DNA of 64,000 nt. Source: Achromobacter xylosoxidans A8 (lineage in GTDB: Bacteria; Pseudomonadota; Gammaproteobacteria; Burkholderiales; Burkholderiaceae_B). Position 1 is the stretch's first letter; each line of letters starts with the position of its first letter. Below are positions 46,710-61,219 of this stretch, in pieces. The position numbers were made by a program, and so were the translations under genes. The stretch covers positions 2,604,001 to 2,668,000 of the forward strand of contig NC_014640.1 in the NCBI RefSeq assembly GCF_000165835.1, given 5' to 3'. The notes under the pieces are model-generated. The model was not told the DNA's origin. It searched no databases and worked only from the letters and a program-made list of their open reading frames with translations.

Positions 46710-48446
46710 TCAGGGCGCCGTCCCTGCACCCGCCGGCTGCTGCTGGCGGGACCGGACCAGAAAATCGGCGGCGATGACGATGTCTGCATCATTGCGGCGA
46801 TCTTCCGCCATATAGGGAACCTGCTGCCGGAAGTCACGCCGCAGCGCGCCGGTTCCTGCCCCGAGCGCGAAGTCGGGGCGTTTGGCCACGCGCAAATCCA
46901 CGGCCTGGGCGGCGTGCATCAGTTCTACCGCCAGCAGGGTGGTCAGCCGGTCGATCTGGCCGGCTACCCTGCGGCCCGTGGCTGGCGCGTTGGTTCCCAC
47001 GTCTTCGATATTGCCGGCCTGGGGTTGCACGTCGGTCGTCATCGGCAGCGCCAGTACCCGTATCTCCGCCGCGAGCGACGACACGGTCTTCTGGATCGGA
47101 CCATATCCGATCGCGCCATTGCCCGGACTGAGAAACCGCGGGAGCCCCGTGAATGCGGTATCGGTCAACCGAAGCGTGCGCTGCGCCGACAACTGGGCCA
47201 CCTGGGACAGGGCGACGCCCATGCCCTGCAAGGGCAGCGCCCAGGCGCTGGGGTCGAATCCGGCGTTGGGCATCACGGCGCCGCGGACCGGGCCTTCCGT
47301 GACGTAGAACTGCAATTCGTAGGGCTGGGCATGCTCGGCGGGCCTGGCATCCAGCGCCACGGTGGGGTTGTCGTCGGAACTGTTGATCTGCAGTTGCAGC
47401 TGCCGCTGCAGCAGCTGCAGCATGTCCCGCGCCGCGCCATGGACCTGGCTCACCGTGCGAAAGCTCAGCGGGTCTTGCAGCGCCCGCTGCGGGTCTCGCT
47501 GCCACAGGGAGCTGCCGCGCAACAGCGCAAGTATGTGTTCGGCCGTGCTTACCTGGCCGTCGTAGGGCCGCTGGTTTTGCGACACGGACAGCAGCGGCGC
47601 GAGGTTGCCGTCCAGGCCTTCGAGCGACAGCGCAGCGACCGCATCGGCCTGGGAGAGCAGCCTGGCCGCGTCCAGCGCCGCCAGCGATGCGATGGCGGCG
47701 CCATAGGCGTTGGAGCTGACGATGGCCAGGGCGTCCTTGCCGAAAGGCTGCACCGGCTCGAGCCCCGCCTGGCGCAATGCCTGCGCCGCAGGCAGGCGCT
47801 GGCCGCGGTAGTAGGCCTGGCCTTCACCCATCATCGCCAGCCCGATCTGCGGCAGAATGGTGATGTCGGCCTGCCCGACCGAGCCTTCGCCGAACATCAC
47901 CGGGGTGATGCCGCGGTTGAGGAATTCGGCGTACTGGCGCAGCACCGCTGGCTGCAATCCGGCGCCGCCGGACAACGCCGTGTTCAGCCGGATGAGCATC
48001 GCTGCCCGGGTGACCTCCTGAGGCGCTTCGCTGCCATAGGCGGCGCTGTGCGAACGCAGCAGGTTGCGGTTGAACTGCTCCGACAATTTGCGGACTTCGG
48101 GCGAAATCTCTCCGCCCTTGAAAATGGTCTGGTCCTTGTTCAGCCCGACGCCCCGGTTCAGTCCGTACACGGGACGATCCAGCTGCGCATAGGCCAGCAG
48201 CAGCCCATAGGAACGTTCTGCCCGCTGCATCGCCTCGTCGGCCAGCGCTACGCCGCAGCCCTGCCTGGCCACGGATTCGATCTGCGCCAGACTGAGCGTA
48301 CGTCCGTCCAGCTTGACAGGGGTGCAGGCGGCGATGGCGGCCAGAGGGGCGAACATGGCGCCGAGCAGCGCGACGGCGCTTATGGCCAGGTGGATGGTGG
48401 GACTGTGTGGACGGGCAGGGGAGAACGGCGAGTTCTGCATGAGCAT
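46710..48446 (-). CDS. Exported, MIO-less HAL/PAL-family lyase homologue (ergothionase-like candidate)
   Basis: A 578-residue aromatic-amino-acid-lyase-fold protein. The lyase Tyr is present at Y94 (PVYGLNRGVG) and the NSSDDNPT segment resembles the fold's conserved DNP motif. However, the invariant Ala-Ser-Gly that cyclises into the MIO cofactor is replaced: GEGSVGQADITILPQ (about 186-200) has Q192-A193-D194. It also starts with a signal sequence (hydrophobic stretch at about 20-40) and a cysteine at 41 in an IAAC context, so it is periplasmic or a lipoprotein. Ergothionase, as I recall, is a MIO-independent relative that eliminates trimethylamine. It is last gene of the operon running from 57382. 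AGGAG precedes ATG 48446. Confidence 0.72.
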   Translation of the reverse strand: MLMQNSPFSPARPHSPTIHLAISAVALLGAMFAPLAAIAACTPVKLDGRTLSLAQIESVARQGCGVALADEAMQRAERSYGLLLAYAQLDRPVYGLNRGVGLNKDQTIFKGGEISPEVRKLSEQFNRNLLRSHSAAYGSEAPQEVTRAAMLIRLNTALSGGAGLQPAVLRQYAEFLNRGITPVMFGEGSVGQADITILPQIGLAMMGEGQAYYRGQRLPAAQALRQAGLEPVQPFGKDALAIVSSNAYGAAIASLAALDAARLLSQADAVAALSLEGLDGNLAPLLSVSQNQRPYDGQVSTAEHILALLRGSSLWQRDPQRALQDPLSFRTVSQVHGAARDMLQLLQRQLQLQINSSDDNPTVALDARPAEHAQPYELQFYVTEGPVRGAVMPNAGFDPSAWALPLQGMGVALSQVAQLSAQRTLRLTDTAFTGLPRFLSPGNGAIGYGPIQKTVSSLAAEIRVLALPMTTDVQPQAGNIEDVGTNAPATGRRVAGQIDRLTTLLAVELMHAAQAVDLRVAKRPDFALGAGTGALRRDFRQQVPYMAEDRRNDADIVIAADFLVRSRQQQPAGAGTAP

Positions 48447-48484
48447 TGCAACTCCTGGCTTGACGGAAGTAACGGATGCGGCGG

Positions 48485-48513
48485 CTCCGCGGACCGCCAG
48501 GCGGTCCGCGGAG
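48485..48513. promoter_or_regulatory. Long perfect hairpin between the MBL-fold and lyase genes
   Basis: CTCCGCGGACCGCC (48485-48498) and its exact complement (48500-48513) flank one A, giving up to 14 bp of pairing. It lies inside the 85-bp gap of an otherwise tightly packed operon and has no T-tract, so an attenuator, processing site or mRNA-stability element is more likely than a simple terminator. Confidence 0.6.
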
Positions 48514-48531
48514 GAAAAGCGCGGTTGCGGG

Positions 48532-49623
48532 TCAGGGTTGGCGCTGGGGGGCGAGCGGCAGGCGCAGCAGGTCCTGTCCGAGCACTACCGGTCCCTGGAA
48601 GGTCTGCCGCGCCTGCAGCCAATGCTCCGCGGGGGCGTCGCCCGGCACCAGGTGCGACAACACCAGCGTCTTGACGCCGGCGCGGGTGGCTACCTCGCCC
48701 ACCTGCTGCGGCGTGGTGTGGGCCTCCAGCAGTTGCTTGGCCAGCGCCTGCTGGCGCGCGTCCCAGGGTTTGGCGCCGACGATGTGGTCGACCCAGGCCG
48801 GGTCGATCGCCTCATGCACCAGGATGTCCGCGCCGCGTGCCAGCTTGATCAGGTTTTCGCTGACCGCCGTATCGCCGGAGAACACCACGGAGCCTGCCTT
48901 GGTGTCGAAACGGTAGGCGAAGTTGGGATACACCAGTCCGTGCGGCACCAGGATGGCGCTGACCTTGACGCGTTCGTCCTGCCAGACCGGGAACGGCTCC
49001 ATCGGCGGGGCCGGTTCGGTGTTGGGATCCTTGACCACGCCGGCTGGAACCTCGATGTCGTGAGCCTGGAAGAACTGCCGGATATCCGGCACGCCTTCGC
49101 TACGCACCCGTATGTTCAGATCGGCCGACATGCCGGCGATGACCGATTCGACCAGATCGCGCGTACCCGCGGAAGGATTCTCCGCGTGGATCACGGGGTC
49201 GTCCTTCATGCCTGGCGCCAGCGGCGGCAGCGCGCCGCGCCGGCCGGGTCCGTAAATCTGCATCGATGCCTTGGCGCGGCGCCGGGCGCTCGGGTCATAC
49301 ATCAGCAAGTTGGCCAGATCGATGATGTGATCGGTATGCAGGTGCGTCAGGAACACGGCCTGTTCCGTGCCGGGCTTGACGCCGGCGCGGCGCAACTGGC
49401 GATAGGCGCCCGAGCCCAGGTCTACGACGTAGGCTTTGCCATCCACCAGCACCGCCGAGGAAATTCCGTGCGGCGAGTCGTCTCCGTACCAGGTCGGGCC
49501 GCCGGCCACGCCCAGCAGCACCAGTTCGGCCGCGCCGGGCGGTTCGGCCGCGAGCGGCGCGGAGCAGAGGCCGGCCAGGGCCAGCGCCGCGGCTGCGATC
49601 AATGTCTTGCGCGCGTCAAACAT
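48532..49623 (-). CDS. Exported metallo-beta-lactamase-fold hydrolase
   Basis: A 363-residue MBL-fold protein. Residues 1 to about 26, ending SAPLAA, are a signal peptide. The dinuclear metal site motif is THLHTDHI (H94, H96, D98, H99), with VFSGDTA and LSHLVPG supplying later ligands. It resembles the RNase Z/arylsulfatase-like MBL hydrolases. It overlaps the upstream MHS permease gene by 8 bp, so the two are made together, and precedes the exported lyase gene. The reaction is unknown. Confidence 0.83.
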   Translation of the reverse strand: MFDARKTLIAAAALALAGLCSAPLAAEPPGAAELVLLGVAGGPTWYGDDSPHGISSAVLVDGKAYVVDLGSGAYRQLRRAGVKPGTEQAVFLTHLHTDHIIDLANLLMYDPSARRRAKASMQIYGPGRRGALPPLAPGMKDDPVIHAENPSAGTRDLVESVIAGMSADLNIRVRSEGVPDIRQFFQAHDIEVPAGVVKDPNTEPAPPMEPFPVWQDERVKVSAILVPHGLVYPNFAYRFDTKAGSVVFSGDTAVSENLIKLARGADILVHEAIDPAWVDHIVGAKPWDARQQALAKQLLEAHTTPQQVGEVATRAGVKTLVLSHLVPGDAPAEHWLQARQTFQGPVVLGQDLLRLPLAPQRQP

Positions 49624-50956
49624 GGCGGCCCTGCGGCAGCAGCGTCAGCGCCACCAGCGCGACCACGCAGGCGCCCATCACGTACAGCGCGGGCGCGAAC
49701 GCCACCCCGGTGGTGTAGGTGATCCAGGTAAGAATGGCCGGCGCGAATCCGCCCAGGACGGTGACCGCCGTGTTGTACGACAGGGACATGCCCGAAGAGC
49801 GCACGCTGGTGGGAAACACTTCCGACAGCGCTGCGGGGGCGACGCCCACGTACATGGCCACCATCAGGCAGAACAGCGACTGCACCACGATGAGCGCGCC
49901 CTGGGTATGCGTTGCCTTCAGCCACATCATCAGCGGGTAGACGGCGATCAGCAGGATCAGCGCCGCCGCGCGCAGCACGGTGCGGCGGCCGTAGCGGTCC
50001 GACAGGGTGCCGGAGAACACGCAGCCGCCGATCAGGAACAGATTGCCCACCAGCGCGGCCAGGAAGGCCTGGGAACTGGTGAAGCCCAGCGATTTCTGCA
50101 CATAGATGGGCATGAAAATGATGAGCGCATAGGGGCCGACGGCCCACAGCACCGACATGCACAGGCCGGTCAGCAGTTCTTTCGGATAATCCCGAATGAC
50201 CGCCAGCAGCGGCGCCTTGACGTGGTCGCCCTGGCGCGCCTGGCGCGCCTGTTCCTCGCGGAAATGCGGCGTTTCGTCCAGCGCCCGGCGCATCCACAGG
50301 CCCACCGGGGCGATTGCGAGGCCGATGATGAACGGCACGCGCCAGCCCCATTCGCCCACTTGCTGTTCGGTCAGCAGAGTAGTGACCAAGGTCGCCACCA
50401 GCGCGCCCAACAGGTTGGAAATCCCCATGCTGGCCTGCAGCCAGGAGGCGTACTGGCCGCGCTTGCCTTCCGGCGCATGCTCGACCAGGAAAGCGGTGGC
50501 GCCGCCGACCTCGCCGCCGGCAGAGAAACCCTGCAGCACGCGGCCGCAGACGATCAGCAGGGGGGCGCCCACGCCGATCGCGGCATAAGGCGGCGCCGCC
50601 GCGATCAGCAGCGTGCCCACGGCCATCAGCATGATGGTCAGGGTCAGCGCCGCCTTGCGCCCGGCGCGGTCGCCATAGGATCCCAGCACCAGCGCGCCCA
50701 GCGGCCGCACCACGAAGCCCAGGCCGAAGGCCAGGAACGAGGCCATCAATTGCACGGTGGGGTCGGCGTTATGGAAAAAGTTCTGCCCGATATAGACGGC
50801 GAACAAGGCATAGACGGTGAAGTCGTACCATTCGAGGGCATTGCCCGCCGATGCCGCAATCACCGCCTTGCGGCCGCTGCGCTCATGCGCCGCAGCCTGA
50901 TGTGCCGGACGGCCGGGTGGAGCGCCGGCTCCTGGATTGATCGTGATGTCTTTCAT
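49616..50956 (-). CDS. MHS-family MFS transporter
   Basis: A 446-residue metabolite:H+ symporter with ALEWYDFTVYALFAVYIGQ at helix 1, GSYGDRAGRKAALTL in loop 2-3 and RVLQGFSAGGEVGGATAFL. It is within the operon of urocanase-like, DUF917 and acyl-CoA genes, so it probably imports the imidazole- or thioimidazole-type acid they degrade, or the product of the exported lyase. Confidence 0.87.
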   Translation of the reverse strand: MKDITINPGAGAPPGRPAHQAAAHERSGRKAVIAASAGNALEWYDFTVYALFAVYIGQNFFHNADPTVQLMASFLAFGLGFVVRPLGALVLGSYGDRAGRKAALTLTIMLMAVGTLLIAAAPPYAAIGVGAPLLIVCGRVLQGFSAGGEVGGATAFLVEHAPEGKRGQYASWLQASMGISNLLGALVATLVTTLLTEQQVGEWGWRVPFIIGLAIAPVGLWMRRALDETPHFREEQARQARQGDHVKAPLLAVIRDYPKELLTGLCMSVLWAVGPYALIIFMPIYVQKSLGFTSSQAFLAALVGNLFLIGGCVFSGTLSDRYGRRTVLRAAALILLIAVYPLMMWLKATHTQGALIVVQSLFCLMVAMYVGVAPAALSEVFPTSVRSSGMSLSYNTAVTVLGGFAPAILTWITYTTGVAFAPALYVMGACVVALVALTLLPQGRHV

Positions 50957-51022
50957 TGCTTTCCCCTGGAATCATGCGCGCTTGGAGCACGCTCTGAAAA
51001 AAATGCAGAATGGACCGCTGCC

Positions 51023-52186
51023 CTAGGGGCGCGCGGTGGTGGCTGGTTGCCATGCCTGCTGGCCTCGCGCCAGCCGCGCCAGATGGTGCTGGCGCGAACC
51101 GAACATGGCTTCGATCACGGTGACCCGCTTGAAATGCGCGCCGACCTGCAACTCTTCGGTCATGCCGATGCCGCCGTGCAGCTGGATGGCGCCCTGGCCG
51201 ACAATGCGGGCCGACTTGCCTACCTGGGCCTTGGCCATGGAGAGCAGCCGGTCCGCTTCGGGCAGGGCTTCCGCCAGCGCCATGTTGGCGGCCAGCGTCA
51301 GCGAACGCGCTTCTTCGAGCGCCGTGTACATGTCCACCTGCCGGTGCTGCAAGGCCTGGAAGTTTCCGATGGGACGGCCGAACTGGCGCCGGACCTTCAG
51401 GTACTCCAGCGTGGCATCGTGCATGGCCTGCATCGCGCCCAGGGCTTCGCCGCAAAGCGCGCCGATCGCGTGCGCGTACAGGTCGTCCAGCACCGCGGCG
51501 CCTTCGCCCGGACGGCCCAGGACCGCGCCGGCATCCACCCGCAAGCCGTCGAATGACAGATGCGAGGCATGGCCGCCGTCCAGCCTGCGGAACGGCCGCT
51601 GCGCCAGGCCGGCGGCGGCGGCCGGGACCAGGAATAGGGTGATGCCGTCGCGCGCGGCGGCGTCGCCTTGCGTGCGTGCGGACACCATGAATGCCTGCGC
51701 GCCTGGCGCGTCGAACACCATGCGCTTGGCGCCGTCCAACACGTACTCGGCGCCGTCCCGCCGCGCCCGCGAGCTCACCGCGTAGCGATTCTCGTGGGAG
51801 TCTTCTTCGCGGTGCGCCAGCGCCATCCGGTAGTCGCCCGATGCCAACGGACCCAGGCAGGCGTCGCGCTGCGCGGGCGTGCCATGCCGCAGCAGGCATC
51901 CGGCGCCCAGCACGGCGGTCGACAGATAGGGTTCGCCGGCCAGCGCCTTGCCCAGCGCCTCCATGATGATCATGGTTTCCACCGGTCCGCCGCCGATGCC
52001 GCCGTTTTCTTCCGGCAGCGGCAGCGCCAGCCAACCCAGGTCGGCCATCAATTTCCAATCCTCTGGCGCATGGCCGGCGGCGCTGGCGATCAGGCGGCGC
52101 CGACGTTCGAAGTCGCCATGTTCGCGGGCGTAGGTTTCGGCGCTTTCATGCAGCATGCGCTGCAGTTCGTTGAACGAAAAATCCAT
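51023..52186 (-). CDS. Acyl-CoA dehydrogenase, FadE-like (second of a pair)
   Basis: A 387-residue acyl-CoA dehydrogenase with the usual N-terminal helical, middle beta and C-terminal helical domains. QLHGGIGMTEELQVG (about residues 335-349) and RRQFGRPIGNFQALQHR mark the C-terminal domain. It lies 10 bp after a second acyl-CoA dehydrogenase gene. Such unequal pairs often form alpha2-beta2 heterotetramers, as for mycobacterial FadE26/FadE27; this is inference. Substrate would be a CoA thioester made by the CoA-transferase upstream. Confidence 0.85.
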   Translation of the reverse strand: MDFSFNELQRMLHESAETYAREHGDFERRRRLIASAAGHAPEDWKLMADLGWLALPLPEENGGIGGGPVETMIIMEALGKALAGEPYLSTAVLGAGCLLRHGTPAQRDACLGPLASGDYRMALAHREEDSHENRYAVSSRARRDGAEYVLDGAKRMVFDAPGAQAFMVSARTQGDAAARDGITLFLVPAAAAGLAQRPFRRLDGGHASHLSFDGLRVDAGAVLGRPGEGAAVLDDLYAHAIGALCGEALGAMQAMHDATLEYLKVRRQFGRPIGNFQALQHRQVDMYTALEEARSLTLAANMALAEALPEADRLLSMAKAQVGKSARIVGQGAIQLHGGIGMTEELQVGAHFKRVTVIEAMFGSRQHHLARLARGQQAWQPATTARP

Positions 52187-52196: not shown

Positions 52197-53399
52197 CTAC
52201 AATCCCAGCACGTGCTTGGCCAGGATGTTGCGCTGGATCTCGTTCGAGCCGCCCCAGATCGTCACCTTGCGCAAATTGAAGTACAGCGGGCCCGCCGCTG
52301 CCGCGAAATCCGGGCCCAGCGCGTCCGGGTCCGCGCTCAAGCCGTCCAGCAGCGCCTCGTCCAGCGCCAGCGCGTCTTCCCCGAGGCAATCCATCGCCAG
52401 TTCGCTGATGGCCTGTTCGATTTCGGTCCCGCGTATCTTCAGGATCGAGGCGGCGCTGCCAGGACTCTGCCCGGCATTCATGGCGCTCAGGAAGCGCAGT
52501 TCGGTGTATTCCAGCGCGCACAGCTGCGTTTCCAGGTCGGCCACGCGCAAGCGCAGCGCCGGGTCGTCCAGGCGAGTCCCGCCCATGCCGTCCGGCAGTC
52601 GCCGCGCCACGCCCTTGACGCGCGCCAACAGGCGCTTGGAGCGGGCCACGCCAGAGATCACGAAGCGCTCGTGTTCCAGCAGGAACTTGCCGTAGGACCA
52701 GCCTGTGCCTTCGCCGCCCACCAGCTGGGATGCCGGCACCCGGACGTTGTCGAAGAACACTTCGTTGACTTCGGCGTCGCCATCCAGCATGCGTATCGGC
52801 CGCTGGCTGATGCCGGGCGAGCGCAGGTCCAGCAACAGGAAGGAGATGCCTTGCTGCGGCCGCTCCTCCTTGCTGGTGCGCACCAGGGCGAACATCCAAT
52901 CCGCCCATTGCGCCCAGGTGGTCCAGATCTTGGAGCCGTTGACGATATAGTCGTCGCCATCGCGCACGGCTGTCGTGCGCAGCGACGCCAGGTCGGACCC
53001 CGACCCGGGTTCCGAATATCCCTGGCACCACCAGTCGTGGTTGGCCAGGATGCGCGGCAGGAAACGGGCTTTCTGCGCCTCGTTGCCGTAGGTGTAGATC
53101 ACCGGCCCGACCATGTTGACGCCAAACTGCACCAGCGGCGGACAGGGCTGCGCGCCGTACTCCTGCTGGAACAGGTATTTCTGCACTGCGCTCCAGCCGG
53201 GACCGCCATACTGTTCCGGCCAGTTCACCGCATACCAGCCGCGCGCCGCCAGGATGTCCTGCCAGCGGGTGTAGTCGCTGCGCGCAAGGCGCAGGCCCAG
53301 TTCGACTTTGCGCCGGATGTCGGCCGGCAAGTGGGCGGCGATGAAATCGCGCACCTCGCAGCGGAAGCGTTCTTCTTCCGCGCTGAACCGCATTTCCAT
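52197..53399 (-). CDS. Acyl-CoA dehydrogenase, FadE-like (first of a pair)
   Basis: A 400-residue acyl-CoA dehydrogenase. Substrate/FAD motifs WCQGYSEPGSGSDLASL (about 130-147) and VNGSKIWTTWAQWADW are intact, and the C-terminus has WGGSNEIQRNILAKHVLG. The residue matching the Glu of YEGT in medium-chain enzymes is Gly, so the base must lie elsewhere, as in many FadE relatives. The start at 53399 is chosen because AGGAG is 7 nt away; the ATG at 53405 is only one base from it. Part of the operon with a family III CoA-transferase. Confidence 0.85.
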   Translation of the reverse strand: MEMRFSAEEERFRCEVRDFIAAHLPADIRRKVELGLRLARSDYTRWQDILAARGWYAVNWPEQYGGPGWSAVQKYLFQQEYGAQPCPPLVQFGVNMVGPVIYTYGNEAQKARFLPRILANHDWWCQGYSEPGSGSDLASLRTTAVRDGDDYIVNGSKIWTTWAQWADWMFALVRTSKEERPQQGISFLLLDLRSPGISQRPIRMLDGDAEVNEVFFDNVRVPASQLVGGEGTGWSYGKFLLEHERFVISGVARSKRLLARVKGVARRLPDGMGGTRLDDPALRLRVADLETQLCALEYTELRFLSAMNAGQSPGSAASILKIRGTEIEQAISELAMDCLGEDALALDEALLDGLSADPDALGPDFAAAAGPLYFNLRKVTIWGGSNEIQRNILAKHVLGL

Positions 53400-53410
53400 T
53401 CCCATGCTCC

Positions 53411-54598
53411 TCAGATCACACCGGCCGCGCGCAGGCCATCTATCGCCGCGGCATCCATTCCCAACACATCCGCAAGGACGGCAGCGCTGTGCTGCCCCAG
53501 CGCCGGCGCGGTGGCCAGCCTGCCGCGCCGCATTCCCGAGAAATGCACCGGCTGCTCCACCAAAGCCGTCTCGCCCAGGACGGGATGGGGCGCGCGCGTG
53601 GTCAGCTGGCGCACCTGGGCCTGCTCGCTGTCGACTGCCTGCGCGGTGTCCTGGATGGGCGCGGCGGGCACGCCGGCGCGCGTCATGGCCGCCACGGCTT
53701 CCTGCACGCTCAACGTCATGCTCCAGGCTTCGATCAGCGGACGCAGTTCGGCGTCATGGCGGCTGCGTTCGCTATCGGTACGAAAGCGCGGATCGGCCGG
53801 CAGCTCGGGGCGGCCGATGGTGTCCGCGACCGCCTGGAACAGCTTGTCGTTCGCCGCCGCGATCACCAGATGACCGTCGTTCGCGGCGTAGGCGCCAAAC
53901 GGCGAGCTCAGCGGATGCCGGTTGCCGACGCGCACGGGCGCCGCGCCGCCGAACAGATACTGCGCCAGCGCCGTGGGCTGCATGGCCAGTAGCGAATCGA
54001 ACATGGCGACGTCCACATGGCGGCCTTGCCCGCCGCGTTCGCGGTCATACAGCGCAGCCACCACGCCCCAGGCGGCGAACATGCCTGCGCAGATATCGCC
54101 CACCGATTCGCCGATCAGGGTGGGCGCGCCTTGCGCCTCGCCGGTCAGGCTCATCAGCCCGCTCATGGCCTGGGCCACCACGTCGTACGAAGGGCGGGTG
54201 GCATTCGGGCCGTTTTGCCCGAAGCCGGAGATGCTGCAATACACCAGGCGCGGGAACAGCTCGGAAAGCTCGGCGTAGCCGATACCCAGTTTGTCGGCCA
54301 CGCCAGGCTTGAAGTTCTCGATGAGTACATCGCTCCTGGCGGCCAGTTCGCGCGCGATGCGTCGGCCTTCGTCCATCTTCAGGTCCAGCCGGATGCTCTT
54401 CTTGCCCCGGTTATTGAGGATGAAGTTGGTGCTTTCGCCTTGCACCATGCGTCCCATGTGGCGCTGGTCATCGCCTTGGGGCGGTTCGACCTTGATGACC
54501 TCGGCGCCCAGGTCGGCCAGCATGGCCGTGCAGTACGGCCCCGCCAGCACCCGCGTGAAGTCCAGCACGCGCACCCCTTCAAGCATCTTTCTGTCCAT
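53411..54598 (-). CDS. Family III CoA-transferase (CaiB/BaiF)
   Basis: A 395-residue CoA-transferase. VLDFTRVLAGPYCTAMLADL near the start and GAEVIKVEPPQGDD are hallmark motifs, and the catalytic Asp is D168 (ESVGDICAGMFAA), matching D169 of formyl-CoA transferase. It moves CoA onto a carboxylate. It sits 5 bp after the urocanase-like gene and 11 bp before the first acyl-CoA dehydrogenase gene, which places a thioester-activation step inside the imidazole-acid pathway operon. Confidence 0.88.
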   Translation of the reverse strand: MDRKMLEGVRVLDFTRVLAGPYCTAMLADLGAEVIKVEPPQGDDQRHMGRMVQGESTNFILNNRGKKSIRLDLKMDEGRRIARELAARSDVLIENFKPGVADKLGIGYAELSELFPRLVYCSISGFGQNGPNATRPSYDVVAQAMSGLMSLTGEAQGAPTLIGESVGDICAGMFAAWGVVAALYDRERGGQGRHVDVAMFDSLLAMQPTALAQYLFGGAAPVRVGNRHPLSSPFGAYAANDGHLVIAAANDKLFQAVADTIGRPELPADPRFRTDSERSRHDAELRPLIEAWSMTLSVQEAVAAMTRAGVPAAPIQDTAQAVDSEQAQVRQLTTRAPHPVLGETALVEQPVHFSGMRRGRLATAPALGQHSAAVLADVLGMDAAAIDGLRAAGVI

Positions 54599-54603: not shown

Positions 54604-56280
54604 CTAGTCGCCACGTCCAGGGTTGCCATGCCCGTGCTGCGCGGTGTCGATGCGGGCGATGCCCTTTTTCTGCACTTCGTCCAGCGCCTCTTCGTAGCCG
54701 GCGTCGGCATAGCGCAGCACGCCGCTGGCGGTGTCGTTGGTCATCGACAGGCGCAGCCGCTGGTCGGCGGCTGCGGTGCCGTCAGCCACCACCGTGACGC
54801 CGGCGCTGGTCATGTAGCCGCTGTATCCGCCGCCGCCGGAATGGATCGCCACCAGGTCGGCGCTGGACGAGCAATTGATCATGGCATTGAGCAACGGCCA
54901 GTCGGCGATGGCGTCGGAGCCGTCGCGCATGTTTTCCGTCATGATGTTCGGATGGGCCATGGCGCCGGCGTCCAGGTGGTCGCGCGTGAAGGCCACGGGC
55001 GCGCTGAGCACGCCTTCGCGCACCATGCGGTTGACTTCCAGCGCCAGCTCGGTGCGCTCGCCGTGCCCAAGCCAGGCGATGCGCGCAGGCAAGCCTTCGA
55101 ACGGCACTTCCTTGCGTGCCAGGCGGATCCAGTTGGACACAATGAAGTTGTCCGGAAAACGTTGCAGCAGGAAGTCGTCGATCTTGCGGATGTCGTCGGC
55201 GTCGTTCGACAGCGCGATCCAGCGGAATGGACCGATGGCGCGGGCGAACAGGGGCCGCAGGAAGGCTTCGGTGAACACCGGGATCTCGAAGGCGCGTTCG
55301 ACGCCGCCCTGTTTGGCGTGGGTGCGGATGAGGTTGCCGTTGTCGAACACAACCGAGCCGCGGTCCTGGAACCCGAGCATGGCGGTGACATGCCGGACGA
55401 TCGAGGCGCGGCTGGCGTCCATCAGTCCGGACACGTCGCTGCGGCGCATTTCCGCCACTTGTTCCAGCGTATGGCCAGCGGGGATGTAGCCATAGACCAG
55501 GTCGTGTGCCGAGGTCTGGTCGGTGACGATGTCGGGCACGATGCCGCGGGCCAGGATTTCGGGGTAGACGTCCGCGGCGTTGCCCAGCAGGCCGACCGAA
55601 ATGGGTTCGCGGCGGGCCTGTGCCTGGCGGATCAGGTCCAGGGCCTCGTCCAGGGAGTCGGCGCGCCGTTCGAGGAAGCCTGCCTTGATGCGCTTTTCGA
55701 TGCGCTCGGGGTTGATCTCCACCGTGAGGATGGCGGCATTCGCCATGCGGCCGGCCAGCGGCTGCGCGCCGCCCATGCCGCCCATGCCCGCCGTCAGGAT
55801 GAAGCGTCCGCGCAGATCGTTGTCGAAATGGCGTTCGGCGATGCGCGAGAAGATCTCGTAGGTGCCCTGGATCACGCCTTGCGAGCCGATGTACTGCCAG
55901 TCGCCCGCTGTCAGTCCGCCCCAGCAGATCAGGTTGTCGCGTTCCAGCTGATAGAAGTTCTCGGCGTGCGCCCACTGGCCGACCATGTTGCAGTTCGCCA
56001 TGATCACGATCGGCGCTTGCGGATGCGTGCGCAGCACGCCGATGGGCTTGCCCGATTGCACGATGAGCGTCTGGTCTTCCTCCAGTTCCATCAGGGCTTT
56101 GACCATGGCGTCATGCGCGGGCCAGTCGCGCGCGGCGCGGCCCAGTGCCGCATAGACCACCAGGTTGGCCGGGTCTTCGCCCACGGCCAGCACGTTTTCC
56201 AGCAGGCGCAGCAGCGCTTCCTGGCGCCAGCCTTTGCAGCGCAGGGTGTTGCCGCCGGGGATATTGAATTCTCGTTTCAC
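54604..56280 (-). CDS. Urocanase-family hydratase, probable thiourocanate hydratase
   Basis: A 558-residue urocanase-family protein with the NAD-binding core (TAGMGGMGGAQPLAG near residues 163-177) and substrate regions QTLIVQSGKPIG and MRDGSDAIADWPLLNA. It departs from true HutU at active-site positions. The conserved Cys in LPARICW is Ala (LPARIAWLG, A402), the Arg of the SPNRETE motif is missing (AHPNIMTEN), and the HHGGG segment reads IHSGGGGYSGY. Thiourocanate hydratase of ergothioneine catabolism is known to be a urocanase with distinct active-site features. Neighbouring DUF917, hydantoinase and carbamoylase genes support that role. No histidine-utilisation genes (hutI, hutF, hutG) are present. 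Confidence 0.8.
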   Translation of the reverse strand: MKREFNIPGGNTLRCKGWRQEALLRLLENVLAVGEDPANLVVYAALGRAARDWPAHDAMVKALMELEEDQTLIVQSGKPIGVLRTHPQAPIVIMANCNMVGQWAHAENFYQLERDNLICWGGLTAGDWQYIGSQGVIQGTYEIFSRIAERHFDNDLRGRFILTAGMGGMGGAQPLAGRMANAAILTVEINPERIEKRIKAGFLERRADSLDEALDLIRQAQARREPISVGLLGNAADVYPEILARGIVPDIVTDQTSAHDLVYGYIPAGHTLEQVAEMRRSDVSGLMDASRASIVRHVTAMLGFQDRGSVVFDNGNLIRTHAKQGGVERAFEIPVFTEAFLRPLFARAIGPFRWIALSNDADDIRKIDDFLLQRFPDNFIVSNWIRLARKEVPFEGLPARIAWLGHGERTELALEVNRMVREGVLSAPVAFTRDHLDAGAMAHPNIMTENMRDGSDAIADWPLLNAMINCSSSADLVAIHSGGGGYSGYMTSAGVTVVADGTAAADQRLRLSMTNDTASGVLRYADAGYEEALDEVQKKGIARIDTAQHGHGNPGRGD

Positions 56281-56290: not shown

Positions 56291-57382
56291 TCAGGATGCC
56301 AATGCGTAGTCGGTGAAGTTCATGCCCAGCGCCTTTTCCACGATGGGGTAGACCGACGGGTCGGTCACGCTGGAGGAGAGGGGGATGTGTTGCTTGCGCA
56401 CGTGCAGGACGCTGACCTGCAGGCCCTCGCGCAGCTTGCCCGCGCTGACCGGGTTGCCATCGCTGTCCAGCGTGGTGATCACGTCCGGGTAGCAGGCGAC
56501 CCGTTCTCCGTGGCTGTCGGTCACCGCCATGTGCTCGTTCATCACATGGATGACGCGCTTGGCGGCGCCTTCACCGATTTCGACGGTGCCGATGTCGAAG
56601 GCTTCTTCGGTGTAGCGCAGCGTGTTGCGTACGACCTTGCCGGAAGCGATGATCTCGCCCTGCGTGGCCTTGCAGATCGCATCGATGACCGCGCTGCCGC
56701 CGCGCGGCTGCGCCGCGATGATGGCCTCGCCCAGCGCCAGCGCCTTGCTGATGCCGCCCAGCGCGGCGTGGCGGCGCACGTAGGATGCGCGTATGGGGTT
56801 GCGGCAGCTGGCGATGAAGCCGCCCGCCATGTCGGCCGCCTTGCGCAGCACCGGCGAGACCTTGCCGGTGGCGCCGTGGACCGTCAGCTCCATATAGGAA
56901 TTGCTGGCGCGGTTGCCGCCCACCGCGCACTGGATCATCGGTTCGGGGCTGCCCGCCAATCCGAGCGAACCCATGTCGCCGGTGGGGTGGGCGCGGATGT
57001 CGCCCACGGCGTCGACCACCTTGGTGCCCAGCACCGCCGAAGGCAGCCAGCCGTTCAAGGTGCTGGACATGCCGTTCTGGCCGATGATCAGTCCGTAGAC
57101 CCGTTCTCCGAGCGCGTCCTGCAGCCGCTGCGCGGCCTTGACGTAGTCGATGCCCAGCATTTGCCAGTCGGTGAGTCCGCCCGGCGCGCCGATGGCGGCC
57201 GCGGTGGCGATCCACGCGTCGTCCGGCACCTCGTCCATGGTGACCAGTTCAGGGCGGCCGATGGTTACGGCCAGCGAGCCCAGTTCGCGCCCATGCTCGG
57301 CCCAGCCGCCGCCGCCGCAGGCGAATACCGAGCCGCCCCGAACCGCGGCTTCGACGTCCTGCATCGTCAAGATTCTTCCCAT
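56291..57382 (-). CDS. DUF917/S-methyl-thiohydantoin-desulfurase-like protein
   Basis: A 363-residue DUF917 (now S-Me-THD type) protein. The N-terminal domain has GSVFACGGGGWAEHGREL (about residues 18-35) and DEVPDDAWIATAAAIGAPGG. The C-terminal domain includes QCAVGGNRASNSYMELT. The family supplies the thiohydantoin-desulfurising enzyme linking the two halves of the ergothioneine pathway, as I recall. First gene of the eight-gene operon; its stop is 10 bp before the urocanase-like start. ATG 57382 is preceded by GGAGG nine bases away. A hydantoinase/oxoprolinase-like hydrolase is the alternative reading. Confidence 0.8.
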   Translation of the reverse strand: MGRILTMQDVEAAVRGGSVFACGGGGWAEHGRELGSLAVTIGRPELVTMDEVPDDAWIATAAAIGAPGGLTDWQMLGIDYVKAAQRLQDALGERVYGLIIGQNGMSSTLNGWLPSAVLGTKVVDAVGDIRAHPTGDMGSLGLAGSPEPMIQCAVGGNRASNSYMELTVHGATGKVSPVLRKAADMAGGFIASCRNPIRASYVRRHAALGGISKALALGEAIIAAQPRGGSAVIDAICKATQGEIIASGKVVRNTLRYTEEAFDIGTVEIGEGAAKRVIHVMNEHMAVTDSHGERVACYPDVITTLDSDGNPVSAGKLREGLQVSVLHVRKQHIPLSSSVTDPSVYPIVEKALGMNFTDYALAS

Positions 57383-57483
57383 GACCCCATTCCTCCCGAT
57401 TGCTGTTTTCAACGATCCCGCAGCGCTTGTGCGGGATGGACGGGGGGATCATAGGAAGCAAGCTTGATAATGTCGTATTACCT

Positions 57484-57512
57484 TTTATGCTTTGTACATA
57501 ACATCATGTTAA
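57484..57512 (-). promoter_or_regulatory. Promoter and LysR-type site before the DUF917 operon
   Basis: On the minus strand TTAACA (57512-57507), a 17-bp spacer and CATAAA (57489-57484) form a plausible promoter. The palindrome TAACATCATGTTA (57499-57511) overlaps the -35. A related dyad lies at 58495-58509, between the LysR gene and the hydantoinase gene. Confidence 0.6.
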
Positions 57513-57599: not shown

Positions 57600-58490
57600 C
57601 TAGGCGCGCTGGTCGAGCTTGTGCAGCACGTCGATAAAGGCCAACGCCAGCCGTGACAGCGGCTGGAGCTGGACGTGGAACACATTGACCGGCGCATTCA
57701 CGGTGCCGATGATGGGCAAGGTCACCACTTCCGACCAGATCGGCCCGGCGACCGTGATCTCGTCCACCAGCGCCACCCCGGCGCCGGCTTGCACCAGCGC
57801 GCAGGCGACGTGGGCTTGCTGAACCTCGATGCGCGGTTCGGGCTGCTCGTTCTCGCCGCCGAACAGCTTGTTGATCAACATGCCGAAGGGAATGTCGGCG
57901 CTATAGCCGATCAGAGGCTCTTCGGCCAGATCGTGCACCGTGACGCGGCCGCGCGCCGCCAGCGGATGGCCTTTGGGCAGTACCGCCACGATCTGGTTTT
58001 CGTACAGCGGCTGCCATGCCAGGCTGGGGTGGTCCACCGGCATGTAGGCCACGCCCAGCTCTACCTGCTGCGTCAGCAGCGATTGCTGCATCACCGCGGG
58101 GATCAGGGTCTGCAGCACGATGCGCACTTCCGGGAATTGGCGCCGGAACTGCGCGATCGCGCGCGGCAGCAGGGATTGGCCCAGGCTGGGGCTGCAGGAC
58201 AGCCGCAACTGGCCTTCGCGGTTTTCCGCCAGGTTGTCCGCCACTTCGTTCACGCGCTGCACGTTCTGGTAAAGCGCCGTGACCTCCACGAACAGCCGAT
58301 GGGCTTCCGGCGTGGGGTACAGCCGGCCCTTAATGCGCTGGAACAGCATCAGGCCCAAGCGTTGCTCCGTATAGGAGATCAGCCGGCTGACCGCGGGCTG
58401 CGAGACGAAAAGCAGCTTGGACGCGCCACTGATGGAACCGCTGAGCATGATGGCCCGGAAGACCTCGATCTGCCGTAGATTCAATTTCAT
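57600..58490 (-). CDS. LysR-family regulator of the imidazole-acid cluster
   Basis: A 296-residue LysR protein of the NocR/OccR-like type: MKLNLRQIEVFRAIMLSGSI and SKLLFVSQPAVSRLISYTEQ form the HTH. The effector domain (about 90-290) has PSLGQSLLPRAIAQFRRQFP. It lies between the two catabolic operons, reads in the same direction as the DUF917 operon and is divergent from the hydantoinase gene. Similar dyads in front of both operons make it the probable activator of the whole pathway. Confidence 0.87.
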   Translation of the reverse strand: MKLNLRQIEVFRAIMLSGSISGASKLLFVSQPAVSRLISYTEQRLGLMLFQRIKGRLYPTPEAHRLFVEVTALYQNVQRVNEVADNLAENREGQLRLSCSPSLGQSLLPRAIAQFRRQFPEVRIVLQTLIPAVMQQSLLTQQVELGVAYMPVDHPSLAWQPLYENQIVAVLPKGHPLAARGRVTVHDLAEEPLIGYSADIPFGMLINKLFGGENEQPEPRIEVQQAHVACALVQAGAGVALVDEITVAGPIWSEVVTLPIIGTVNAPVNVFHVQLQPLSRLALAFIDVLHKLDQRA

Positions 58491-58494
58491 ATGC

Positions 58495-58509: not shown

Positions 58510-58589
58510 TTCTCACGCACATATAAGCATAAGACGTTTTGGGAGGGGGCTCCTACACTGCCTGCATTCAACCCAGGATGGAAGCGGTC

Positions 58590-59945
58590 ATGAGCGATTT
58601 CGATTTGGTGGTGCGTGGCAATATCGTCGACCCGGATGGCGTGACGATGGACGGCTGGCTGGCGGTGAGGGACGGCAAGATCGTGGCGCGCGGCGCCGGC
58701 CCGGCCCCCGCGGGCCGCGACAGCGTGGATGCGCGCGGCCAGTGGGTCGTGCCGGGCGTGGTCGACGGCCAGGTGCACTCGGGCAGCCAACTGAATCAGG
58801 AAGGGCTGGGCTGGGCGTCGCGCGCCGCTGCCGCCGGCGGGGTGACGGTCATGGTCGACATGCCTTACGACGATCCGGAACCCGTGGCTTCGCGCCCGCA
58901 GCTGGAGGCCAAGATCGCCGAAGTCGAGCGCGACTGCCACGTCGACGTGGCGCTGTTTGGCACCCTGAACACCCAGCACGGTCTGGCGGCCGCGGCCGGC
59001 CTGATCGAAGGCGGGGTCTGCGCGTTCAAGTTCTCTACCTTCGAAGCCACGCCGGGGCGATTCCCCCGCATCGAGGAAGACGACCTGTATGAAGCCTTCC
59101 GCCTGATCGCGCCTTCCGGACTGGTTTGCGGCGTGCATAACCAGATGCAGGAAATGACCCGCAAGAACATCGCGCGCCTGATCGAAGCGGACGACACGGG
59201 CTGGGACGCCTTCATGCGCGCGCACACGCCGCTGATCGAAAACCTGGCCACGGCGCTGATCTATGAGATCGGCGCCGAAACCGGCGCCCGCGCCCACGCG
59301 GTGCATGTGTCGACCTCGCGCGGCTTCGAGATCTGCAATATGTATCGCCGCAACGGTCATCGCGCCAGTATTGAAACCTGCATCCAGTACCTGATGCTGA
59401 ACCATGAAGAGCACACCCGCCGCTTCGGCGCGAAGACCAAGCACTATCCGCCGATCCGGCCCAAGGCCGAGGTCGACCTGCTCTGGACCCATATCGCCAA
59501 CGACGAATGCACCTTCGTGTCGTCGGACCATGTCAGCTGGGGCCTGGAGCGCAAGCAGAATCCGAACGTGTTCAAGAACTCGTCCGGCGGCCCCGGCCTG
59601 GAGACGCTGCTGCCTGCTTTCTGGACGGGTTGCGAAGAGCATGGCATCGCGCCGTCCATGGTGGTGCGCCAGCTGTGCCGCAATCCCGCGCAGCACTTCC
59701 TGCTGGATGACCGCAAGGGCACGCTGGACGTGGGCAAGGACGCCGACATCGTCATCCTCAAGCCGGAACGCTATGCCTTCGATCCGTCGACCAGCCTGTC
59801 GGCGGTGCAGTGGAGTTCGTTCGAAGGCCGCGAGTTCACCGTGCGCGTCGCGGGCACCTGGTGTCGCGGCCAGCAGGTCTATGACGGAGAGCGCATCGTC
59901 AACCAGAAAGGCGACGGCAGCTTCCTGCGCCCGCGCCAGGCTTGA
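58590..59945 (+). CDS. Hydantoinase/dihydropyrimidinase-like cyclic amidohydrolase
   Basis: A 451-residue amidohydrolase-superfamily protein. Expected metal ligands are carboxylated K147 (CAFKFST), H183 (GVHNQM), H239 (AVHVSTS) and D313 (SSDHVSW). The first HxH motif, however, reads D59-G-Q61-V-H63, with Gln for the first His. In the proposed pathway it opens hydantoin-5-propionate to N-carbamoylglutamate. ATG 58590 has GGAAG five bases upstream; ATG 58578 is possible. The next gene starts 11 bp after the stop. Allantoinase or dihydropyrimidinase are alternatives but no purine or pyrimidine genes are near. Confidence 0.82.
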   Translation: MSDFDLVVRGNIVDPDGVTMDGWLAVRDGKIVARGAGPAPAGRDSVDARGQWVVPGVVDGQVHSGSQLNQEGLGWASRAAAAGGVTVMVDMPYDDPEPVASRPQLEAKIAEVERDCHVDVALFGTLNTQHGLAAAAGLIEGGVCAFKFSTFEATPGRFPRIEEDDLYEAFRLIAPSGLVCGVHNQMQEMTRKNIARLIEADDTGWDAFMRAHTPLIENLATALIYEIGAETGARAHAVHVSTSRGFEICNMYRRNGHRASIETCIQYLMLNHEEHTRRFGAKTKHYPPIRPKAEVDLLWTHIANDECTFVSSDHVSWGLERKQNPNVFKNSSGGPGLETLLPAFWTGCEEHGIAPSMVVRQLCRNPAQHFLLDDRKGTLDVGKDADIVILKPERYAFDPSTSLSAVQWSSFEGREFTVRVAGTWCRGQQVYDGERIVNQKGDGSFLRPRQA

Positions 59946-59956
59946 GGGACACGGCA

Positions 59957-61219
59957 ATGTCTGTGCAGTTTCCCCCCCTGAACGCCGAGCGCCTCTGGGC
60001 CCGCGTCGAAACTCTCTCCCGATACACGCTGCCGGACGTTCCCTGGACGCGCCGCGCGTTCTCGCCGCTGTTCGATGAAGCCCGCGCCTGGCTGCGCGGC
60101 GAATTCGAAGCCGCGGGCCTCTCGACCCGCCTGGACGCCGGCGGCAACCTGGTCGGCACGTTGGCCGGACGCGATCCGGCGCGCAAGCCCATCGCGACCG
60201 GTTCGCACTGCGACACCGTCATGGCCGGCGGCCGTTTCGATGGCATCATCGGCGTGCTGGCGGGTATCGAGGTGGCTCACACCCTGCGCGAGCAAGGCGT
60301 GCAGCTGGAGCACCCCTTCGAGGTCATCGACTTCCTATCCGAAGAGCCCAGCGACTACGGCATCTCCTGCGTCGGCAGCCGCGCGCTGTGCGGCCAGTTG
60401 ACGCCCGACATGCTGCAGGCTCGCAACCCCGATGGCGAAACGCTGGCGGCCGGCATTGCCCGCATCGGCGGCGACCCCTCGGCGCTGGGTGCGCCGCTGC
60501 GTGGCCCCGGCGGCACTGCCGCCTTCGTCGAACTGCATATCGAACAAGGTCCGGTGCTGGAAAGTCGCGGCCTGCCCATCGGCGTGGTCACCAACATCGT
60601 CGGCATCCGCCGCGTGCAGATCACGGTGGAAGGCCAGCCCGACCATGCCGGCACCACGCCCATGGACATCCGCCGCGACGCCCTGGTGGGCGCGGCCCGC
60701 ATTATCGACGCGGCCAACCGCCAGGCCAGCGCCGCCAGCGGCAATCCGCATTACGTGGTCGCCACCGTGGGCCGCCTGTCGATGACGCCCAACGCCGCCA
60801 ACGCGGTGCCGGGGCGCGTCGAACTGACGCTGGAAATGCGCAGCGACAGCGATGCCGTGCTGGATGCGTTTCCGGAAACCTTGATGGCTGGCGTGGCAGG
60901 CGATCTCAAAGCGCTGCGCCTGACCGCCAGCTTCACGCAGCTGAGCCGCGCGCGGCCCACCGACTGCACGCCGCTGGTGATGGACGCGGTGCAGGCCGCC
61001 GCTGATCAGTTGGGCTATGTCTCGATGCGTCTGCCCAGCGGCGCGGGCCACGATGCCGTCTACATGGCGCCCACGGGCCCCATCGGCATGATCTTCATTC
61101 CCTGCCTGAACGGCCGCAGCCACTGCCCGGAAGAGTGGATCGAGCCCGCGCAACTGCTGGACGGCACCAGAGTGCTGTACCAGTCGGTGCTGGAACTGGA
61201 CCGGAAGTTGCGGGCATAG
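59957..61219 (+). CDS. N-carbamoyl-L-amino-acid hydrolase (M20 family)
   Basis: A 420-residue Zn-dependent amidase of the hydantoinase/carbamoylase family. Metal ligands are H84 (TGSHCDTV), D95 (GGRFDGIIGV), E130 (FLSEEPSDY) and the His of VELHIEQGP; the dimerisation-domain motif DHAGTTPMDIRRD is intact. It would release glutamate (or another amino acid) plus CO2 and ammonia from the carbamoyl product of the adjacent hydantoinase. Allantoate amidohydrolase and beta-ureidopropionase share the fold. Operon with the hydantoinase gene. Confidence 0.87.
   Translation: MSVQFPPLNAERLWARVETLSRYTLPDVPWTRRAFSPLFDEARAWLRGEFEAAGLSTRLDAGGNLVGTLAGRDPARKPIATGSHCDTVMAGGRFDGIIGVLAGIEVAHTLREQGVQLEHPFEVIDFLSEEPSDYGISCVGSRALCGQLTPDMLQARNPDGETLAAGIARIGGDPSALGAPLRGPGGTAAFVELHIEQGPVLESRGLPIGVVTNIVGIRRVQITVEGQPDHAGTTPMDIRRDALVGAARIIDAANRQASAASGNPHYVVATVGRLSMTPNAANAVPGRVELTLEMRSDSDAVLDAFPETLMAGVAGDLKALRLTASFTQLSRARPTDCTPLVMDAVQAAADQLGYVSMRLPSGAGHDAVYMAPTGPIGMIFIPCLNGRSHCPEEWIEPAQLLDGTRVLYQSVLELDRKLRA

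What the first reader, a model, noticed from the sequence alone, without database searches (positions are those of the whole stretch)
46710..61219. Candidate ergothioneine-type (thio-imidazole) catabolic system in a new gene arrangement
All five enzyme types of the reported ergothioneine-to-glutamate pathway occur together: HAL-fold lyase, urocanase-fold hydratase, DUF917 desulfurase, hydantoinase and carbamoylase. They form an eight-gene minus-strand operon plus a divergent two-gene operon around a LysR gene. Active-site changes in the lyase and hydratase argue against histidine degradation. The added CoA-transferase, two acyl-CoA dehydrogenases, an MHS permease and an exported MBL-fold protein are not part of the published pathway as I remember it, so the true substrate may be a relative of ergothioneine.
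Basis: partly seen in the sequence, partly recalled or inferred. Interest (0 to 1): 0.9.

Follow-up and report, generated by a model that had tools for sequence, protein, structure and literature searches.

The report
Ergothioneine-degrading operon with two inlets
This Achromobacter gene cluster encodes close matches to the four enzymes known to break thiourocanate down to glutamate, plus two separable add-on gene sets: a lyase predicted to be exported that likely cuts the antioxidant ergothioneine outside the inner membrane, and a CoA-transferase with a paired dehydrogenase predicted to feed in the saturated relative of thiourocanate, a compound that gut anaerobes would leave behind.

Summary
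Eight minus-strand genes (46710-57412), a LysR gene and a divergent pair (to 61219) include four enzymes that pass NCBI's curated cut-offs for the published ergothioneine route: thiourocanate hydratase, thiohydantoin desulfurase, ErtD and ErtE. The lyase lacks the MIO triad; by sequence and fold its best PDB match is ergothionase. The genome has a separate hutHU locus.

The new part is modularity. (1) The lyase has a predicted signal peptide. Of 36 ert loci with a predicted exported lyase, 34 have an MHS permease and none a detected betaine importer; of 5 with a cytosolic lyase, none has MHS and 4 have a betaine importer. So thiourocanate, not ergothioneine, likely crosses the inner membrane here. 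(2) CaiB-ACADl-ACADs is a rare plug-in: seven close orthologs found, all in ert loci; two Pandoraea genomes carry it with no ergothionase-type lyase found. I infer oxidation of 3-(2-thioimidazolyl)propanoate to thiourocanate. (3) One 15-bp operator stands in both promoters; similar sites precede relocated lyase units, but 40 of 79 loci lack one. Nothing is tested biochemically; the MBL hydrolase is unassigned.

The parts
46710..48446 (-). Ergothionase-type lyase (HAL fold, no MIO), predicted exported (signal peptide with cleavage near residue 40)
   Evidence: Pfam PF00221; hutH cut-off not met, 302.3 of 539.15 bits; best PDB match ergothionase 6s7j by sequence (1e-85) and fold (2.7e-37, TM 0.94 to target); MIO ASG replaced by QA, K453 of the IQK motif kept; signal peptide by own heuristic
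48532..49623 (-). Metallo-beta-lactamase-fold hydrolase, predicted exported, role unassigned; H94, H96, D98, H99, H228, D251, H324 invariant among 25 aligned sequences (metal-ligand roles recalled)
   Evidence: N-terminus; best fold match MBL-type arylsulfatase 8gyg, then PNGM-1 and others, RNase Z kin among them
49616..50956 (-). MHS-type MFS permease, inferred importer of thiourocanate-type carboxylates
51023..52186 (-). Acyl-CoA dehydrogenase small subunit (nearest NCBIfam model PimD; Ala at the position of the isovaleryl-CoA dehydrogenase Glu)
52197..53405 (-). Acyl-CoA dehydrogenase large subunit (nearest NCBIfam model PimC; E246 aligns with E247 of 4x28_A)
   Evidence: ert-linked clade 100/100
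53411..54598 (-). Family III CoA-transferase (CaiB type), Asp kept in GESVGDICAG (catalytic role recalled)
   Evidence: PF02515 443.9 bits; best PDB match 10uh
54604..56280 (-). Thiourocanate hydratase
   Evidence: NF058530 1045.8 bits against cut-off 930; best PDB match 7ned, deposited as urocanate hydratase
56291..57412 (-). Thiohydantoin desulfurase (DUF917/S-Me-THD fold); likely start 57382
   Evidence: NF058529 599.7 bits against cut-off 440
57498..57512 (.). LysR-type operator candidate TTAACATGATGTTAT (minus strand) upstream of the eight-gene operon
   Evidence: one of only two places in the window, 0 in 100 shuffles
57600..58490 (-). LysR regulator
   Evidence: PF03466, PF00126
58495..58509 (.). 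LysR-type operator candidate TTAACCTGATGTTAA between LysR and ErtD
58539..59945 (+). Hydantoin-5-propionate amidohydrolase ErtD; likely start 58590
   Evidence: NF058538 697.1 bits against cut-off 600
59942..61219 (+). N-carbamoyl-L-glutamate amidohydrolase ErtE
   Evidence: NF058540 672.4 bits against cut-off 520

Best explanation
This is an ergothioneine-utilisation (Ert) gene cluster with a core of four enzymes that match the known thiourocanate-to-glutamate route, joined to two separable inlet modules: a MIO-less lyase predicted to be exported, which likely releases trimethylamine from ergothioneine in the periplasm, and a CaiB plus paired acyl-CoA dehydrogenase unit predicted to oxidise 3-(2-thioimidazol-4-yl)propanoate to thiourocanate. 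Inferred mechanism: ergothioneine enters the periplasm and the lyase makes thiourocanate and trimethylamine. The MHS permease carries thiourocanate (and the saturated acid) across the inner membrane. Inside, CaiB moves CoA from thiourocanoyl-CoA to the incoming saturated acid, the two-subunit dehydrogenase re-oxidises that acyl-CoA with electrons going to ETF, and the next transfer frees thiourocanate, so CoA cycles without ATP. Thiourocanate hydratase, the desulfurase (H2S released), ErtD and ErtE then give glutamate. A LysR protein likely drives both promoters through one shared palindromic operator. Shown by calls: gene identities by curated models, MIO loss, operator sites in the window, linkage and separability of the modules. 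Inferred: export, transport, the substrate and direction of the CoA unit, all activities.
For: Core: four curated equivalog cut-offs passed, S-methyl variants not. Lyase: ergothionase is the top PDB match by sequence and fold; ASG replaced, K453 shared with the Paenibacillus and Cohnella ert lyases and absent from the two HutH rows. Export: of 45 loci with an ergothionase-type lyase among 79, 36 called exported, 5 cytosolic, 4 ambiguous; MHS in 34 of 36 exported and 0 of 5 cytosolic; OpuAC- or BCCT-type betaine importers detected in 0 of 36 exported and 4 of 5 cytosolic. CoA unit: orthologs of the large ACAD at 77% or more in 3 of 43 Achromobacter, 1 of 15 Bordetella and 3 of 398 genomes of the Pandoraea family sample, all three Pandoraea (genus list); next best 54%. 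All seven lie in the ert locus; none of the six outside the window has a separate hut gene in the stretch held, and the window's hut locus is 2.3 Mb away. A 59% homolog in an Afipia ert locus joins the same clade, 100/100 against 12 outgroups. Gene order differs: between hydratase and MHS (window, B. trematum), after MHS (Pandoraea), beside a divergent MHS (Afipia). Separability: Pandoraea G001 and G003 have the CoA unit and genome-wide only MIO-bearing HAL-type lyases were found; B. trematum has the MBL-lyase pair on another contig. Large ACAD keeps the Glu aligned with E247 of 4x28_A, small subunit has Ala at the isovaleryl-CoA dehydrogenase position. Regulon: operator in both promoters; sites also before the relocated lyase units of B. 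trematum (2 mismatches) and Janthinobacterium (1) and before MHS-CaiB-ACAD in Pandoraea (2).
Against: No biochemistry and no expression data. The substrate of the CoA unit is inferred only from position, co-occurrence and enzyme class. The window, A. pulmonis (G030), G027 and B. trematum have both modules, so the unit does not strictly replace the lyase. The export/transporter pairing rests on few independent events: export state changes twice on the lyase tree, only 2 independent pairs, sign test cannot reach 0.05. Signal peptides were called with my own heuristic. The hydratase also passes the generic hutU cut-off (705.9 of 375 bits). The operator is not universal: a site with up to 2 mismatches lies before desulfurase or ErtD in 39 of 79 loci; 40 have none, among them ten Burkholderia, Paraburkholderia and Trinickia loci, the Firmicutes and the Afipia locus. 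The Pandoraea site before MHS is also there in two genomes without the CoA unit (L117, L118). The MBL protein has no place in the scheme.
Confidence: 0.6

Rival explanations
1. The CaiB-ACAD unit works in the opposite direction: it charges thiourocanate with CoA and reduces it as an electron sink, as CaiB/CaiA do with crotonobetaine.
For: CaiB-type transferase plus ACAD is the make-up of the carnitine system (recalled). The unit sits directly after the hydratase gene.
Against: It would compete with the hydratase of the same operon. Its NCBIfam scores are far from the CaiA and CaiB cut-offs (small ACAD 87.2 and large ACAD 63.1 of 540; CaiB 132.6 of 413 bits). Two Pandoraea genomes have it although no ergothionase-type lyase was found in them.
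Confidence: 0.12
2. The unit handles a different acid: imidazolepropionate, another thioimidazole, or it is a CoA-dependent trimethylamine-releasing system like the gamma-butyrobetaine (Bbu) route.
For: ACAD-family trimethylamine elimination is known for gamma-butyrobetainyl-CoA (PMC8364193, title and abstract start in a search listing; details recalled). The unit occurs without an ergothionase-type lyase in two Pandoraea genomes; the Afipia locus has none either, and that genome gave only a broken match of 34% whose type I did not settle.
Against: All seven orthologs lie in ert loci and no separate hut gene was seen beside the unit in the nine loci tested. In ergothioneine the amine sits on the alpha carbon, so a CoA ester would not help the elimination that ergothionase performs (chemical reasoning).
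Confidence: 0.15
3. The exported lyase and MBL hydrolase act on an oxidised or conjugated ergothioneine (for example the sulfonate), not on ergothioneine itself.
For: The MBL occurs in 13 of 13 loci with an exported YGLNRG-type lyase and in no other of 79; its best fold match is an arylsulfatase. An ergothioneine sulfonate pathway is cited in PMC13405746 (passages).
Against: The cytosolic enzymes match the thio-forms, whose desulfurase step needs the sulfur still on the ring. Loci with the other exported lyase type, Burkholderia among them, have no MBL.
Confidence: 0.1
4. An ordinary Ert pathway in which the CaiB-ACAD genes are passengers with an unrelated role.
For: 14 of 17 desulfurase-bearing Achromobacter genomes lack the unit.
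Against: Seven of seven orthologs plus an alphaproteobacterial homolog lie in ert loci in different gene orders, with short gaps in the window.
Confidence: 0.08

Closest known systems
Five-step ergothioneine-to-glutamate pathway of Paenibacillus (Beliaeva, Leisinger, Seebeck 2021; not held; content recalled, title seen in a reference list)
   Same: All five enzyme types; four pass curated equivalog cut-offs.
   Different: In the Paenibacillus and Cohnella relatives seen here (L080, L081) the lyase is cytosolic beside an OpuAC-type ABC importer. In the window it is predicted exported beside an MHS permease, with an MBL hydrolase and a CaiB-ACAD unit added.
Histidine utilisation (hutH/hutU)
   Same: Folds of the first two enzymes.
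   Different: No MIO triad, hutH cut-off not met, a separate hut locus in the same genome.
Two-subunit acyl-CoA dehydrogenases (ChsE4-ChsE5, entry 4x28, names recalled; PimC-PimD)
   Same: Large plus small subunit; Glu position kept in the large one, Ala in the small one.
   Different: PimC and PimD cut-offs not met (427.3 of 623.85 and 345.1 of 652.7 bits); the large subunit forms its own ert-linked clade among the rows tested.
CaiB/CaiA carnitine system (recalled)
   Same: Family III CoA-transferase that would exchange CoA between substrate and product of an ACAD.
   Different: Far below CaiB and CaiA cut-offs; opposite direction proposed.
EgtUV ergothioneine importer (PMC9732360, passages)
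   Same: OpuAC-family importers accompany cytosolic lyases.
   Different: No such importer in the window cluster; MHS permease instead.

Membership tests
Ergothioneine (Ert) catabolic pathway | Thiourocanate hydratase | tested here: met
   NF058530 1045.8 bits, cut-off 930; the genome's own HutU scores 689.6, and 0 of 14 control genomes pass
Ergothioneine (Ert) catabolic pathway | Thiohydantoin desulfurase | tested here: met
   NF058529 599.7 bits, cut-off 440
Ergothioneine (Ert) catabolic pathway | ErtD and ErtE hydrolases | tested here: met
   NF058538 697.1 of 600 and NF058540 672.4 of 520 bits
Ergothioneine (Ert) catabolic pathway | MIO-less ergothionase | tested here: met
   By sequence and fold only; no ergothionase model appeared among the NCBIfam matches
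Ergothioneine (Ert) catabolic pathway | Activity on ergothioneine and its intermediates | not testable with these tools
   needs enzyme assays
Histidine utilisation (hut) | HutH with MIO triad and equivalog score | tested here: not met
   302.3 of 539.15 bits; ASG absent
Histidine utilisation (hut) | HutU equivalog score | tested here: inconclusive
   The hydratase passes the generic hutU cut-off (705.9 of 375) but scores higher on, and passes, the thiourocanate model
S-methyl ergothioneine pathway | S-methyl thiourocanate hydratase and S-methyl thiohydantoin desulfurase | tested here: not met
   753.6 of 880 and 280.9 of 450 bits
CaiA/CaiB carnitine system | Equivalog scores | tested here: not met
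   87.2 and 63.1 of 540, and 132.6 of 413 bits
Two-subunit ACAD (ChsE4-ChsE5 type) | Catalytic Glu in the large subunit, absent from the small one | tested here: met
   E246 aligned with E247 of 4x28_A by my count; Ala in the small subunit; the catalytic roles are recalled
Two-subunit ACAD (ChsE4-ChsE5 type) | Assembly as alpha2-beta2 | not tested
   no complex prediction offered

The most novel reading that the evidence does not exclude
A CoA-cycling CaiB plus two-subunit dehydrogenase turns 3-(2-thioimidazol-4-yl)propanoate, the reduced waste of anaerobes that respire thiourocanate, back into thiourocanate. Aerobic soil and host-associated bacteria can thereby salvage carbon, nitrogen and sulfur from both ends of an interspecies ergothioneine cycle, in some species (Pandoraea) without being able to cut ergothioneine themselves.
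Probability: 0.5. Interest if true: 0.72.

Novelty: new variant of a known kind. Interest (0 to 1): 0.6.

Why it matters
If right, it places ergothionase outside the inner membrane in the proteobacterial ert operons that pair it with an MHS permease, so the transported species is thiourocanate. It also gives thio-imidazole propanoate an aerobic catabolic route and links it to a trimethylamine-releasing antioxidant pathway relevant to gut and soil. The modules are small and separable and give clear growth and enzyme tests.

Tried and rejected
Histidine degradation: rejected. S-methyl ergothioneine: rejected for hydratase and desulfurase by cut-off. Neighbouring genes as parts: the substrate-binding protein at 61262-62500 has close relatives beside ert only in some of the Achromobacter loci, plus one 50% homolog at the edge of L082, so it was left out; the genes left of 46700 (MHS, aldolase-like, DsbA-like, named by eye) were left out as a separate plus-strand set. 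A viral-contig scan with a desulfurase gave no relatives. Paper searches: one paper with the word thiourocanate, two with thiourocanic, none with all three terms; in the other listings (titles and starts of abstracts) I saw nothing on an exported ergothionase or a CoA-dependent thioimidazole route; subscription journals are mostly not held. One search covered a gene name seen in a listing and was useless. The order-wide ACAD search found only the own genome at E <= 1e-150 (1 of 399), and searches scored at most 4 candidates per genome, so distant copies may be missed. MBL role: fold search gave arylsulfatase, PNGM-1 and RNase Z kin and no assignable substrate. A tree test of export against transporter had too few independent pairs. 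The operator was first thought general; the count gave 39 of 79 loci.

Rows handled by hand: I set L025, L040, L053 and L067 to ambiguous (L067 scored as exported but shows no clear cleavage site; L040 scored 1.72 against my limit of 1.9; L025 had no usable start; the L053 lyase runs in two pieces). L106 scored 1.75 and is not among the 79 loci. L077 counts as exported although its lyase motif is atypical (YWFNRG); L078 fell below my 35% limit. Importers were detected only by likeness to the query proteins named. Several contigs are short, so absences there are weak (for instance L046 holds a cut hydratase gene). The scan keeps the best 80 of 81 matches. The group label also took in two unrelated CaiB copies of Pandoraea (L020_1470, L022_1468), so for CaiB I rely only on the fork of 8 linked rows (99/99), not on the group line.
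Full report
WHAT IS THERE. The window lies in a 7.36-Mb genome of the genus Achromobacter: G030, told as same genus, holds the contig of the named A. pulmonis locus (contig length 1297631). Eight minus-strand genes run from the desulfurase (56291-57412) to the lyase (46710-48446), with a LysR gene upstream on the same strand and a divergent pair on the plus strand. Four proteins pass NCBI's curated cut-offs for ergothioneine use: thiourocanate hydratase 1045.8 of 930 bits, thiohydantoin desulfurase 599.7 of 440, ErtD 697.1 of 600, ErtE 672.4 of 520. The hydratase also passes the generic urocanase cut-off (705.9 of 375), but the genome's own HutU scores only 689.6 on the thiourocanate model, and no control genome of 14 passes it. 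The S-methyl variants fail (753.6 of 880; 280.9 of 450). A hutH/hutU locus stands elsewhere.

THE LYASE. It belongs to the HAL fold but fails the hutH cut-off (302.3 of 539.15 bits). Its best PDB match by sequence is T. denticola ergothionase 6s7j at 1e-85, and by fold the same entry leads at 2.7e-37, ahead of aminomutases and HAL. The MIO triad ASG of HutH is replaced by QA with one residue missing, and a lysine (K453, motif IQK) found in 20 of the 21 non-HutH lyases aligned, the window's included (the exception is L078), is absent from the two HutH rows. That ergothionase lacks MIO is stated in PMC13405746 (passages).

EXPORT AND TRANSPORT. The lyase begins with a signal-peptide-like segment. 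A scan of GTDB genome contigs with a desulfurase alignment gave 78 distinct ert loci; with L087 that makes 79. Of 45 with an ergothionase-type lyase, I exported, 5 cytosolic and 4 ambiguous; 34 have none in the stretch. MHS permeases are in 34 of 36 exported and 0 of 5 cytosolic loci; OpuAC- or BCCT-type betaine importers in 0 of 36 and 4 of 5. The ambiguous ones split 3 MHS and 1 OpuAC. This fits a simple rule: where the betaine is imported, the lyase is inside; where the lyase is outside, a carboxylate-type carrier brings in the product. The tree shows few independent switches (2 pairs), so this is a pattern and not a statistical proof. The MBL gene is in 13 of 79 loci, which are the 13 loci with an exported lyase of the YGLNRG type, and in B. 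trematum it lies with the lyase on another contig. Its model (pLDDT 87) is nearest to an MBL-type arylsulfatase. I cannot assign it.

THE CoA UNIT. CaiB, large ACAD and small ACAD lie between hydratase and MHS with gaps of 5, 5, 10 and 66 bp. The large subunit is nearest to 4x28_A (ChsE4, name recalled) and keeps the Glu aligned with E247 (by my count on the printed alignment; its catalytic role is recalled). The small subunit has Ala at the isovaleryl-CoA dehydrogenase base position. CaiB keeps its Asp motif. Close orthologs of the large subunit (77% or more) occur in 3 of 43 Achromobacter, 1 of 15 Bordetella and 3 of 398 genomes of the Pandoraea family sample; the next best homologs are at 54% or less. 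The three Achromobacter are among the 17 of 43 with the desulfurase over cut-off, and the three Pandoraea among the 5 of 32. All seven lie within the ert locus, and in the nine fetched loci with the unit that were tested no separate hut gene was seen. An Afipia ert locus has a 59% homolog in the same clade (100/100 against 12 outgroups; the Afipia branch is long). Gene orders differ. Pandoraea G001 and G003 have the unit but only MIO-bearing HAL-type lyases were found in their genomes; G831 was not checked for lyases, and the Afipia genome gave one broken match whose type was not settled. Other Pandoraea (G913, G837) show only the core in the stretch held. Of the 17 Achromobacter with the desulfurase, 11 have MBL-lyase without the CoA unit, 3 have both (own, G027, G030) and 3 have neither nor the hydratase in the stretch; B. 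trematum has both, apart. So two inlets plug into one core independently. The acid one oxidation step above thiourocanate with the same skeleton is 3-(2-thioimidazol-4-yl)propanoate; hence the proposed reaction. PMC13405746 (passages) cites work in which thiourocanate supports anaerobic energy metabolism of gut bacteria; that the product is this propanoate is my recollection.

REGULATION. The pattern TTAACMTGATGTTAW has exactly two places in 64 kb at up to 2 mismatches, one in each ert promoter, 0 expected (100 shuffles). Over the 79 loci, a site with up to 2 mismatches lies within 420 bp before the desulfurase match in 31, before the ErtD match in 31, before both in 23, before either in 39; 40 have none, including ten Burkholderia, Paraburkholderia and Trinickia loci (L025, L030, L031, L033-L038, L042), the Firmicutes loci and the Afipia locus. 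In 695,592 base-shuffled bases there were 0 hits at up to 2 mismatches and 2 at up to 3. In Janthinobacterium the unlinked lyase has a one-mismatch site about 140 bp before its open frame (L111), in B. trematum the relocated MBL-lyase pair has a two-mismatch site (L106), and in Pandoraea a two-mismatch site precedes MHS, which is followed by CaiB-ACAD; the same site is also there in Pandoraea without the unit.

WHAT IS SHOWN AND WHAT IS NOT. Shown: identities by curated models, MIO loss, operator sites in the window, linkage and separability. Inferred: export, transport, CoA chemistry, directions. Literature: the five-step paper was not held. Ten searches of open-licence papers listed nothing whose title or abstract start describes an exported ergothionase or a CoA-dependent thioimidazole route; I read passages of two papers only. 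Most subscription journals are not held, so novelty is provisional.

Noticed in passing
L004:7996-9765 (G000:C1 about 3.894 Mb): A second ergothionase-type lyase with a predicted signal peptide (62% identical) in the same genome, followed by a TctC-like binding protein and an ornithine-cyclodeaminase-like gene (named by eye), without MBL or ert genes recognised beside it; possibly another betaine substrate.
   Followed up: partly
L059-L061, L063-L065, L069, L074, L079, L084, L085: Bosea-type and related loci hold desulfurase, ErtD and ErtE but no hydratase and no lyase in the stretch; several carry a site like ATAACCTGATGTTAW, in most of them not directly before these genes: a lower-half pathway, perhaps for thiohydantoins.
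   Followed up: partly
L017, L018, L019: Achromobacter loci with desulfurase, MHS, ErtD and ErtE (cut by the contig end in L018 and L019) but neither hydratase nor lyase in the stretch.
   Followed up: no
L039 and L044: Comamonas ert loci with an exported YGLNRG lyase and MBL; L039 also has a porin and a second exported lyase of the YGLTVG type in the same locus.
   Followed up: no
L087: A same-family genome (G059) with desulfurase, hydratase and exported lyase but no ErtD or ErtE in the stretch.
   Followed up: no
L053: The Raoultella ert lyase is split over two reading pieces.
   Followed up: no
window 43000-46700: A plus-strand set with LysR, class II aldolase-like, MHS permease and DsbA-like isomerase genes (named by eye) ends next to the lyase; looks like a separate catabolic operon.
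   Followed up: no
window 61262-63368: Urea/amide-type ABC binding protein and a GntR-like regulator (the latter by eye); the binding protein stands beside ert in some Achromobacter, with one 50% homolog at the edge of L082.
   Followed up: partly
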